Notes under the pieces: model-generated | The model's database searches: none | What the model was told of the DNA's origin: nothing | The model's input: the letters and a program-made list of their open reading frames with translations, nothing else | DNA from: a virus | Direction: 5' to 3' (one strand) | IMG/VR virus record: IMGVR_UViG_3300001282_000028 | Coordinates: 1-36,107 of that record | Length of the DNA stretch: 36,107 nucleotides | Translations under genes and position numbers: made by a program | In this document: one piece after another, positions 10,793 to 13,603 of the stretch | Layout of the letters: every line of letters starts with the position of its first letter | Position numbering within the stretch: the stretch's first letter is position 1

Positions 10793-10933
10793 ATAACACT
10801 TAGATAGGTACAGGCTCGTGCGAGCAAGGCGCCAGTAAATACTGATGCTCAAACCTTGTATCTTTATCCGTGGGCTCTGGTTGCAACCATCTCCGTCCGA
10901 GATATAGTAAACCTGTATCTTTCTAAGTGTTAT
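10793..10933 (+). ncRNA. Structured RNA element A (141 nt, long closing stem)
   Basis: A perfect 12-bp inverted repeat (ATAACACTTAGA / TCTAAGTGTTAT) encloses the whole spacer between tRNA-Cys and tRNA-Ile, extended by TACAGG/CCTGTA after a small internal loop. Inside are a GCTCGTGCGAGC palindrome, CAAGG/CCTTG enclosing CAGT-AAAT-ACTG, and ATCTC-CGTCC-GAGAT. No ORF of note. Looks like a discrete folded RNA released by tRNA processing. Function unknown. Confidence 0.6.
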
Positions 10934-11244: not shown

Positions 11245-11325
11245 GGAACATAACAACAGGACGCTGGCTCTGTGAAGTAAGATATCGGGTTGATCTCCGA
11301 GAAGGTATGGAGAGTGTTATGTTCC
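11245..11325 (+). ncRNA. Structured RNA element B (81 nt)
   Basis: Perfect 10-bp closing stem GGAACATAAC / GTTATGTTCC fills the spacer between two lysine tRNAs. Inside, ACAG/CTGT and two competing or knotted pairs: TCGG/CCGA and TCTCC/GGAGA share the CC. It contains CTCTGTGAAGT, which also occurs in the pseudoknot at 13,687-13,734. No coding potential. Confidence 0.6.
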
Positions 11326-11417: not shown

Positions 11418-11466
11418 CTCCGAATCACTAAATAGCAATGACAATAAGACTATTAGTGATTCGGAG
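11418..11466 (+). promoter_or_regulatory. RBS-sequestering hairpin of GIY-YIG gene
   Basis: CTCCGAATCACTAAATAG pairs with CTATTAGTGATTCGGAG (17 bp, one bulge). The 3' strand contains most of the GGAGG Shine-Dalgarno at 11463-11467, 8 nt before the ATG. Read-through transcripts from the tRNA array would be translationally silent. T4 I-TevI is controlled in the same way. Confidence 0.75.
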
Positions 11467-11475
11467 GTTAGCGCA

Positions 11476-12135
11476 ATGCACTTTATTATTTATAAAGTTA
11501 CAAACAAATTAAACGGTAAAGAATATACTGGAAAGCATCAAACAGAAAACCTTAATGATGGTTATATGGGTTCCGGTAAATTAGTTAGATCTTCTATTAA
11601 TAAATATGGAATTCAATTTTTTTCGAAAGAAATCTTGCATATTTTCGATAATGAAGAAGAAATGAACGCTAAAGAAAAAGAATTGGTCACAGAAGAATAT
11701 TGTGATAGAACAGATACATATAATATATGTCCTGGTGGTAATGGTGGGTTTGGGTATATCAACAGAACAATAGATAGAACTTCTCTGAATAGAGAAATAT
11801 CTTCTAAAAGAGACTATAAAGACGAGCAGTATAGATCTAAACTCTCTAGAAGAACTAAAGAGGGTATGAATACGCCAGAATTAAAAAAATATATTTCTGA
11901 CAAATTGAAAAAACATTGGAAAGAAAATGGCCATAATTGGGTTGGTAAATCACACAAACCAGAATCAATTGCTTTGATGAAAGAATCATCTAAGGGTAAA
12001 CATGATGGTTCTAAGAACAGCCAGTATGGCACTTGTTGGATAACTAACGGTTCTATTAATAAGAAAATCAAGAAAGAAGAACTTGACTTATGGGTAGAAC
12101 AAGGATATTATAAAGGTAGAAAATTGGGGGCGTAG
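11476..12135 (+). CDS. GIY-YIG homing endonuclease (Seg-like) in tRNA array
   Basis: 219 residues from the ATG after GGAGG. HFIIYKVTNKLNGKEYTGKHQT is the GIY-YIG core, then GSGKLVRSSINKYG, FSKEIL and the catalytic Glu region (EEEMNAKEKELV). Middle NUMOD3-like basic helices (KYISDKLKKHWKENG, PESIALMKESSKG) and a C-terminal WITNGSINKKIKKEELDLWVEQGY module typical of phage Seg/Mob proteins. Inserted exactly after tRNA-Lys(TTT); its stop TAG is T8-A9-G10 of the following tRNA-Asp, so the last seven coding nt and the stop are tRNA sequence. Expression is likely held down by the upstream hairpin. Confidence 0.93.
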   Translation: MHFIIYKVTNKLNGKEYTGKHQTENLNDGYMGSGKLVRSSINKYGIQFFSKEILHIFDNEEEMNAKEKELVTEEYCDRTDTYNICPGGNGGFGYINRTIDRTSLNREISSKRDYKDEQYRSKLSRRTKEGMNTPELKKYISDKLKKHWKENGHNWVGKSHKPESIALMKESSKGKHDGSKNSQYGTCWITNGSINKKIKKEELDLWVEQGYYKGRKLGA

Positions 12136-12305: not shown

Positions 12306-12395
12306 GGAGAGTTGGCTGAGTGGCCTAAAGCACTCGTTTGCTAAATGAGCGTAGGAGAAATTCTACCGTGGGTTCGAATCCCACACTCTCCGCCA
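12306..12395 (+). tRNA. tRNA-Ser(GCT)
   Basis: Class II with long variable arm (TAGGAGAAATTCTA). Acceptor GGAGAGT/ACTCTCC, loop TTGCTAA, discriminator G and CCA. Confidence 0.95.
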
Positions 12396-12404
12396 AAAAA
12401 GTTA

Positions 12405-12433
12405 TTGACTTGTTGATAAATTTTTAGTAAGAT
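12405..12433 (+). promoter_or_regulatory. Sigma70-type promoter within tRNA array
   Basis: TTGACT - 17 nt - TAAGAT, just after tRNA-Ser. It would restart transcription for structured element C and the downstream tRNAs. Confidence 0.6.
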
Positions 12434-12449
12434 AACTAAATAGAATACT

Positions 12450-12610
12450 TGATAATACGCCAACGGATTAGATTGCGGTTCGAAACGTGGACAGTAATAC
12501 GGTTGCAGTCAATCCCGACTAACCTGCGATGGTTAGCGCCTTGATCGGTGTAGTAGGAAACGGTGCGAGGAGAGCCTATAGGTTATTTCTAGTCCGTTGG
12601 CGTATTATCA
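12450..12610 (+). ncRNA. Structured RNA element C (161 nt, 18-bp perfect closing stem)
   Basis: TGATAATACGCCAACGGA pairs perfectly with its complement 125 nt later, extended by TTAG/CTAG to about 22 bp. Inside, GGTT-gc-AGTC-aatccc-GACTAACC competes with CTAACC-tgcgat-GGTTAG, and a T-loop-like GGTTCGAAAC occurs. It starts right after its own promoter. It is the strongest stand-alone small-RNA candidate in the window. No protein reading frame is convincing here. Confidence 0.7.
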
Positions 12611-12612
12611 AT

Positions 12613-12688
12613 GGGGGTGTAGCTCAACTGGGAGAGCAGCTGCCTTGCACGCAGCAGGTTGCAGGTTCGATGCCTGTCACTTCCACCA
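12613..12688 (+). tRNA. tRNA-Ala(TGC)
   Basis: Acceptor GGGGGTG/CACTTCC, stem GCTGC/GCAGC with loop CTTGCAC, T loop TTCGATG, CCA encoded. Confidence 0.92.
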
Positions 12689-12691
12689 TTT

Positions 12692-12775
12692 GGAGGATGG
12701 CGTGCCTGGGGCACACACTGTCTTGAAAACAGCGCCACCGAAAGGTTGATGGTTCGATTCCTTCATCCTCCGCCA
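12692..12775 (+). tRNA. tRNA-Ser(TGA)
   Basis: Acceptor GGAGGAT/ATCCTCC, stem CTGT/ACAG with loop CTTGAAA, short class II variable arm, discriminator G, CCA. Confidence 0.92.
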
Positions 12776-12938: not shown

Positions 12939-13013
12939 GCTGGTAGGTCGGCAAGATGTCGAGGAGTCCTCATAAGGCTTTAAAGGTTGGTTTGATTCCA
13001 ACTATCAGCACCA
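12939..13013 (+). tRNA. tRNA (CAT anticodon: Met or Ile2), divergent
   Basis: Acceptor GCTGGTA/TATCAGC, T arm GTTGG-TTTGATT-CCAAC, loop CTCATAA in a wobble-rich GAGTC/GGCTT stem. The D arm lacks the usual GG pair. Which of Met, fMet or lysidine-modified Ile it is cannot be told from the anticodon. Confidence 0.7.
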
Positions 13014-13018
13014 GAGGT

Positions 13019-13122
13019 GGTTGTCTAAGTTGTATAGACATGCGAACGAGGCTACCTTGCCTCAACCGCTATCGGTTGTCTAAGTTGTATAGACATGTGA
13101 ATGAGGCTACCTTGCCTCAACC
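13019..13122 (+). repeat. Tandem 49-nt structured RNA repeat (two copies)
   Basis: Copies at 13,019-13,067 and 13,074-13,122, 6-nt spacer. Each folds as GGTT/AACC closing a GTCTA-agttgta-TAGAC hairpin, an 8-nt linker and a GAGGC-tacctt-GCCTC hairpin, i.e. a three-way junction. Copies differ only by two C-to-T changes in the linker (ATGCGAAC vs ATGTGAAT); all paired bases are identical. No ORF needed to explain them. Confidence 0.8.
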
Positions 13123-13134
13123 GTTTCTGTTTAT

Positions 13135-13294: not shown

Positions 13295-13295
13295 A

Positions 13296-13414
13296 TTCGC
13301 CCGCTTCGGCGTAGAAAAATAGAGCGCATGTAGGACCGAGTGCAGACAGCGTATAAATTGAGCCAAACTGTGAAAAGTGCACAAGTAGCAGAAAGGCGAA
13401 CGAGTCTTCGGTCC
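13296..13414 (+). ncRNA. H-type pseudoknot RNA element D
   Basis: Stem 1 TTCGCC (13,296) with GGCGAA (13,395); stem 2 GGACCGA (13,333) with TCGGTCC (13,408); the strands interleave as 1-2-1'-2'. The first loop holds a CGC-TTCG-GCG tetraloop hairpin; the inner loop holds GTGC/GCAC and ACAG/CTGT. It lies between tRNA-Pro and tRNA-Val. Confidence 0.6.
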
Positions 13415-13425
13415 AGGGAATTTAT

Positions 13426-13501: not shown

Positions 13502-13517
13502 CTATTCCAGTGAATCG

Positions 13518-13592
13518 CTATGGACGCATAGAGGGGTTGCTGGCAGGGTAACGATTAGCAGAGAGGCGTGTGCAAACCTGCTACCACGTGCC
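13518..13592 (+). ncRNA. H-type pseudoknot RNA element E
   Basis: A CTATG-GACG-CATAG hairpin is followed by TGGCAGG (13,541) pairing with CCTGCTA (13,577) and GGCGTGTG (13,565) pairing with CACGTGCC (13,585), in interleaved order. It fills the spacer between tRNA-Val and tRNA-Leu(TAG). Confidence 0.55.
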
Positions 13593-13603
13593 CGTAAGTT
13601 TAT

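What the first reader, a model, noticed from the sequence alone, without database searches (positions are those of the whole stretch)
12450..12610. Element C: 161-nt RNA with an 18-bp perfect closing stem and its own promoter
TGATAATACGCCAACGGA is exactly complementary to the end of the element, which begins 17 nt after a TTGACT-N17-TAAGAT promoter. Mutually exclusive inner hairpins share CTAACC, hinting at two states. It looks like a free-standing small RNA.
Basis: partly seen in the sequence, partly recalled or inferred. Interest (0 to 1): 0.7.

Follow-up and report, generated by a model that had tools for sequence, protein, structure and literature searches.

The report
Conserved structured RNA in phage tRNA array
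Between two tRNA genes of an uncultured T4-like phage lies a roughly 160-letter RNA gene whose two ends pair over 24 letters; the same RNA, with its pairing preserved through many matched changes, recurs in the tRNA clusters of related phages but matched no annotated phage genome or RNA family searched here, so it is a real, new non-coding RNA of unknown job.

Summary
The perfect stem is 19 bp and grows to 24 bp with one G-U (12449-12472 with 12588-12611); 40 shuffles of the array never exceeded 13 perfect pairs. The element lies in a 25-tRNA array of a T4-like phage from metagenomes. About ten distinct homologues were found, all between tRNA genes. Eleven of 24 closing-stem pairs carry compensatory double changes; sliding the partner by one to three columns gives 0-2. 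A second helix and the core CGGUUCGAAACGUKGACA are conserved.

The upstream promoter is real by conservation: hexamers and 17-nt spacing persist while the spacer drifts, and three relatives keep the promoter but lack the RNA. It is not needed everywhere: one homologue sits between tRNA-Met and tRNA-Lys without it. The proposed two-state switch is not conserved.

No match in Rfam, its YrlA model, or 50,697 phage records. At least two further RNA families (A, B) in the array show the same plan. Best reading: a structured RNA cut out of the tRNA transcript, comparable in kind to T4 stable RNAs C and D but unrelated in sequence. Its function in trans is unknown; protein-bound or decoy roles are inference.

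The parts
12405..12433 (+). sigma70-type promoter TTGACT-N17-TAAGAT
   Evidence: 9 of 12. Conserved as TTGACT/TTGAAT-N17-TAAGAT/TATTAT/TAATAT in L170, L096, L101 and L118; consensus match alone is at chance level.
12435..12448 (+). invariant stretch ACTAAATAGAATAC between the -10 and the RNA; likely start site about 12440
   Evidence: Identical in L096, L101, L118, L170; start site inferred from distance to the -10.
12449..12611 (+). element C, the structured RNA (163 nt)
12449..12472 (+). 5' strand of closing stem P1 (24 bp)
   Evidence: 11 of 24 pairs with compensatory double changes, 99.1% of cells paired
12588..12611 (+). 3' strand of closing stem P1
12476..12493 (+). invariant core CGGTTCGAAACGTGGACA (family: CGGUUCGAAACGUKGACA); small hairpin RCG/CGU (12475-12477 with 12486-12488) with loop GUUCGAAA
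   Evidence: The core was the search key for many members, but it was already invariant in the five sequences found by other means.
12493..12498 (+). 5' strand of inner helix P2 (AGUAAU)
   Evidence: 97.6% of cells paired, one pair with double change (A-U/G-C), three with one-sided change
12582..12587 (+). 3' strand of inner helix P2 (GUUAUU)
12519..12536 (+). variable hairpin P3 (CUAACC/GGUUAG); in L193 a T-arm-like GCAAG-UUCGAUU-CUUGC
   Evidence: partial covariation, 77.5% of cells paired
12537..12550 (+). variable hairpin P4 (CGCC/GGUG), different in sequence in relatives, absent in L193
   Evidence: By eye from the sequences
12306..12395 (+). tRNA-Ser(GCU), upstream neighbour
12613..12688 (+). 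tRNA-Ala(UGC), downstream neighbour; its 5' end fixes the likely 3' cut
10793..10933 (+). element A, a second structured RNA of the same plan between tRNA-Cys and tRNA-Ile
   Evidence: 21 closing pairs, 5 with double changes, 100% paired; homologues
11245..11325 (+). element B, a third RNA of the same plan between tRNA-Lys(CUU) and tRNA-Lys(UUU)
   Evidence: Outer stem replaced but still paired in L097 and L132

Best explanation
Element C is a structured non-coding RNA gene carried as a cassette in the tRNA array of a group of uncultured T4-like phages. It is made from the internal promoter before it or as part of a longer tRNA transcript. It is cut free when the flanking tRNAs are processed: RNase P at the 5' end of tRNA-Ala would set its 3' end, and its 5' end is the transcript start or the 3' end of the preceding tRNA. 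The 22-25 bp closing stem, about two helical turns with a drifting outer half, serves pairing as such: it shields both ends and may itself be cut by RNase III. The invariant core and inner helix P2 form a scaffold that most likely binds a protein and acts in trans during infection. Shown: the structure, its conservation, the context, the absence from known libraries. Inferred: expression, processing, stability and protein binding.
For: Homologues lie in three array contexts: promoter-C-tRNA-Ala; tRNA-Cys-C-(tRNA-Asn or further array); tRNA-Met-C-tRNA-Lys. Closing stem: 11 of 24 pairs with double changes, 27 compensated cells, against 0-2 pairs when slid. P2 conserved. Core invariant while inner hairpins vary in number and length, 155-183 nt overall. 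The stem ends a few nt before the next tRNA in most contexts, and it starts at the CCA end in the Cys and Met contexts. Empty site with intact promoter in L118/L119/L121 shows that C is a removable cassette. Elements A and B follow the same plan. T4 has annotated 'small, stable' RNAs C and D in its tRNA cluster.
Against: No transcript data: nothing here shows that the RNA is made or is stable. All members are phage contigs from metagenomes, several nearly identical, so the effective number of independent sequences is small (2.1 in the model). No partner protein was identified. The RNase III step rests only on stem length.
Confidence: 0.65

Rival explanations
1. It is only a transcribed spacer: a processing signal or insulator whose long stem keeps neighbouring tRNAs apart and guides RNase III or RNase P, with no role after excision.
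For: Flush with tRNA ends; the outer stem drifts freely but stays paired; other arrays lack it altogether.
Against: A pure spacer would not need an invariant 18-nt core and an inner helix kept across phages; most gaps in these arrays have no such element, and three relatives place tRNA-Ala directly behind the promoter.
Confidence: 0.2
2. It is a decoy or inhibitor RNA against a host defence, for example a tRNA-cleaving nuclease, taken up with the tRNAs that serve the same purpose. This is a special case of the trans-acting role in the best explanation.
For: Accessory presence and absence like the tRNAs around it; T-arm-like hairpin in L193 and the TTCGA-containing core. [quoted passage not shown]
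Against: No tRNA-like fold overall: the only tRNA match in the permissive Rfam scan is the neighbouring tRNA. The T-arm-like hairpin is not conserved across members.
Confidence: 0.2
3. It is a phage Y RNA that binds a Ro60/TROVE protein.
For: A phage contig with a TROVE gene (G004) carries the core motif behind a tRNA and a promoter, though its model score is marginal (16 bits, E 0.03-0.09). L171, which carries C, has Y-RNA-like units beside a DUF2828 gene.
Against: Rfam YrlA does not match C in the window. Long contigs with C (G002 136 kb, G003 174 kb) have neither TROVE nor the DUF2828 protein. The Y-like units of L171 carry a different motif (AGGAUNNNUUCAGCAA).
Confidence: 0.07
4. It is a small mobile DNA element with terminal inverted repeats.
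For: Perfect inverted ends, different neighbours in different phages, and an empty site.
Against: Transposon ends are conserved at their tips; here the tips differ between members but stay complementary, while the inner half is conserved. One copy per phage record, and no target duplication seen.
Confidence: 0.04

Closest known systems
T4 stable RNAs C and D (rnaC, 'species 1 RNA', 139 nt; rnaD, 'species 2 RNA', 119 nt)
   Same: Non-coding RNAs of 119-163 nt inside the tRNA cluster of a T4-type phage, annotated as small stable RNAs; a GIY-YIG homing endonuclease gene lies in the same cluster in both.
   Different: No shared core and no long closing stem: rnaC ends in a tRNA-like T arm (CCGGGTTCGAATCCCGG) and rnaD has a different fold; the model does not match the T4 region. 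The T4 RNAs lie together behind the last tRNA, C lies between tRNAs.
Bacterial Y RNA-like RNA, YrlA (RF02553)
   Same: Small structured RNA with tRNA-related parts; a YrlA-like unit occurs near the tRNA array of a related phage.
   Different: C is not matched by the model, lacks the permuted tRNA domain, and has no TROVE gene in most carriers.
GOLLD and other large ornate RNAs of phages
   Same: Non-coding RNA in phages, some reported near tRNA genes (own knowledge; a paper with these terms was found but not read).
   Different: GOLLD is several times longer (own knowledge), and Rfam gave no match in the window other than tRNA.

Membership tests
T4 rnaC/rnaD-type tRNA-cluster RNAs | Non-coding RNA encoded within a T4-type tRNA cluster | tested here: met
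T4 rnaC/rnaD-type tRNA-cluster RNAs | Sequence or structural homology to rnaC or rnaD | tested here: not met
   Fold comparison; covariance model R1 gives no hit in the T4 region L226
T4 rnaC/rnaD-type tRNA-cluster RNAs | Accumulates as a discrete stable RNA in infected cells | not testable with these tools
   No transcript data available
YrlA / bacterial Y RNA (RF02553) | Match to the Rfam covariance model at its gathering score | tested here: not met
   ten weak matches in the window, none at element C, best 16.9 bits against a cut-off of 69
YrlA / bacterial Y RNA (RF02553) | Genetic association with a Ro60/TROVE gene | tested here: not met
   1 of 17 records, and that one has only a marginal C-like match; for DUF2828. 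The records may be incomplete and a host protein is not excluded.
tRNA | Cloverleaf recognised by ARAGORN or RF00005 | tested here: not met
Any Rfam family | Match at the gathering score | tested here: not met
   permissive scan gives only the neighbouring tRNA and a chance-level snoRNA
Transposon-like element with terminal inverted repeats | Conserved terminal sequences and more than one insertion | tested here: not met
   Tips vary but covary; one copy per record

The most novel reading that the evidence does not exclude
T4-like phage tRNA arrays are nurseries of several unrelated RNA families (C, A, B and more), each with a two-turn, freely drifting but always paired closing stem that lets the tRNA-processing machinery excise it, and each with a conserved inner core that binds a distinct host or phage target during takeover or counter-defence.
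Probability: 0.3. Interest if true: 0.8.

Novelty: new variant of a known kind. Interest (0 to 1): 0.55.

Why it matters
T4 RNAs C and D have been known for decades, to my knowledge without an assigned role. Finding unrelated families of the same kind, conserved by covariation and moving in and out of tRNA arrays as cassettes, suggests that these arrays deliver more than tRNAs. It also gives a compact core (CGGUUCGAAACGUKGACA plus P2) that can be used as bait to find a partner.

Tried and rejected
Direct BLAST of the element and of two homologues against 50,697 phage records: nothing beyond chance. Exact-pattern scan of bacterial genomes with the core: six hits, none near tRNAs and none with a comparable closing stem, three sharing one sequence in Litoricola single-cell genomes; judged chance. 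Model R1 in 369 bacterial genomes of one class: no match, but that class may not hold the host. Complementarity of the core to 16S and 23S rRNA of E. coli: no better than shuffled cores. Antisense targets within the window: longest match 10 nt, not convincing. Two-state switch on CTAACC: not conserved. Y RNA identity: see rivals. Coding potential: the 65-aa ORF at 12529-12726 runs into tRNA-Ala, and homologues differ by lengths not divisible by three. The L202 look-alike (core behind tRNA-Gly and a TTGACA-N17-TAGTAT promoter, closing stem CCAAGUC/GACUUGG seen by eye) was left out of the family because its score is marginal. Four further hits of the relaxed core pattern (L229-L232) did not score as members.

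Full report
What is there. The window holds T4-type replication genes (clamp, clamp loader, RegA-like repressor, SbcC-like subunit, ribonucleotide reductase) and an array of 25 tRNA genes at 10.7-17.5 kb; a further tRNA-Met lies at 32.0 kb. Its clamp loader is nearest to Stenotrophomonas phage DLP6 (63%) and the Methylophilales phages Melnitz (60%), so it is a T4-like phage of an unknown host. Element C fills the stretch between tRNA-Ser(GCU) and tRNA-Ala(UGC).

The stem. The perfect stem is 19 bp, and with one U-G it is 24 bp (12449-12472 with 12588-12611). Shuffles of the array gave at most 13 Watson-Crick pairs and 18 with G-U. The whole folds at z -6.3.

Relatives. Three other contigs carry it without change. 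Diverged relatives were reached in two ways. The first was through neighbouring genes, which gave L170, L096, L101 and L097. The second was through the core sequence, which added L193, L194, L205, L217 and L218. Every member lies in a tRNA array. The family model finds all of them with scores of 122-170 bits and nothing else above noise, apart from the reverse strand of the same sites, a truncated end in L120 and the marginal L202.

Selection on the structure. On nine distinct sequences 99.2% of the closing-stem and core-hairpin cells pair. Eleven pairs show changes on both sides, in 27 cells; sliding the partner by 1-3 columns leaves 0-2 such pairs. The outer half of the stem takes four different forms (UUGAUAAU/AUUAUCAA, AUUACUAU/AUAGUAAU, AAUGUUACUG/CAGUAACAUU, AAUACUUUU/AAAAGUAUU) and stays paired in all, while the inner half (ACGCCAACGGA/UCCGUUGGCGU) is nearly fixed. 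Inside, P2 pairs in 97.6% of cells with one double and three single changes. The core CGGUUCGAAACGUKGACA is invariant. Part of that is by construction, because it was used as a search key, but it was already invariant in the five sequences found without it, and a relaxed pattern added no member with a changed core. The hairpins inside P2 vary in number and sequence; L197 and L198 form a second subfamily inside P2.

Promoter and context. In the tRNA-Ser/tRNA-Ala context the hexamers and 17-nt spacing persist in the window, L170, L096 and L101, with an invariant ACTAAATAGAATAC just before the RNA. L118, L119 and L121 have tRNA-Ala close behind tRNA-Ser; the sequence read in L118 and L119 keeps the promoter and has tRNA-Ala where C would be, an empty site. 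In L193, L194, L205, L217 and L218 the RNA instead begins at the CCA end of a tRNA-Cys that has its own promoter in most of them (TTGACA-N17-TAATAT; the -10 is not evident in L218). In L197 it sits flush between tRNA-Met and tRNA-Lys without a promoter. So C is a cassette of the tRNA transcript rather than an independent unit. The statistic that speaks against the promoter (14 consensus matches, 15.5 expected) is outweighed by its conservation.

Likely working. The stem ends a few nt before the next tRNA in most contexts, so RNase P, which makes tRNA 5' ends, would free the 3' end (established tRNA biology; not tested here). In L194, L195 and L217 the next tRNA that ARAGORN reports starts 84 nt away; the stretch between may hold a tRNA-Asn-like sequence that it missed (by eye). 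A stem of 22-25 bp is long enough for RNase III (own knowledge) and would also protect the ends. Such an RNA with a fixed core most likely binds a protein; which one is unknown. The decoy reading is kept as a serious rival.

Company. Element A (10793-10933) and element B (11245-11325) follow the same plan. Their outer stems change but stay paired: A has 5 double-changed pairs of 21; B shows three different but complementary stems. Neither has a BLAST match among cultured phages. A gap survey of these arrays found closing stems of 9 or more Watson-Crick pairs in 13 of 131 distinct gaps and in none of the shuffled gaps; several of the 13 are near-copies. Some 7-8 bp cases are tRNAs that ARAGORN missed.

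What it is not. Not in Rfam. Not YrlA, with no consistent TROVE or DUF2828 neighbour. Not T4 rnaC or rnaD by sequence or fold. Not a coding region, and not a terminal-repeat transposon.

Limits. No expression data, few independent sequences, hosts unknown, no partner. The literature library held no paper on the T4 RNAs that I could find, so statements on their unknown role rest on my own knowledge; their annotation as small stable RNAs is from the record.

Noticed in passing
L171 10435-11210 (contig IMGVR_UViG_3300035188_000277, which also carries element C): About seven tandem Y-RNA-like units, most with UUUUAGGAUNNNUUCAGCAA ... AUCCUGUU closing ends, one holding a permuted tRNA-like domain (YrlA, 42 bits, below the cut-off), directly upstream of a DUF2828/DUF7788 gene that resembles Ro60 by my reading. 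This looks like a phage Ro-type gene with a battery of partner RNAs and deserves its own study.
   Followed up: partly
L227 1006-2412 (-) and L202 6552-6687 (-), contig IMGVR_UViG_3300025030_001854: A phage contig with a TROVE (Ro60) gene also carries the element C core motif behind a tRNA-Gly and a promoter; family membership is marginal.
   Followed up: partly
10793-10933 and 11245-11325: Elements A and B: two further structured RNA families with covarying closing stems between tRNAs, conserved in relatives and absent from Rfam and from cultured phages.
   Followed up: partly
13020-13125: Two tandem copies of a unit of about 55 nt (GGTTGTCTAAGTTGTATAGACATG..GAGGCTACCTTGCCTCAACC), each folding into two hairpins, between tRNA genes.
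   Followed up: no
12940-13014: A tRNA-Met-like gene (anticodon CAU) with an unusual D arm that ARAGORN and Rfam miss; its relative in L197 directly precedes element C there.
   Followed up: no
11464-12135, 14091-14591, 15308-15898: Three protein genes in the array (GIY-YIG endonuclease, phosphoesterase, oxygenase-like by my reading) stop inside the next tRNA gene, using a TAG within its first 25 bases.
   Followed up: no
13295-13425, 13502-13603, 13681-13744: Further unexplained gaps of the array; the last shares GAGAGCCTATA with element C.
   Followed up: no
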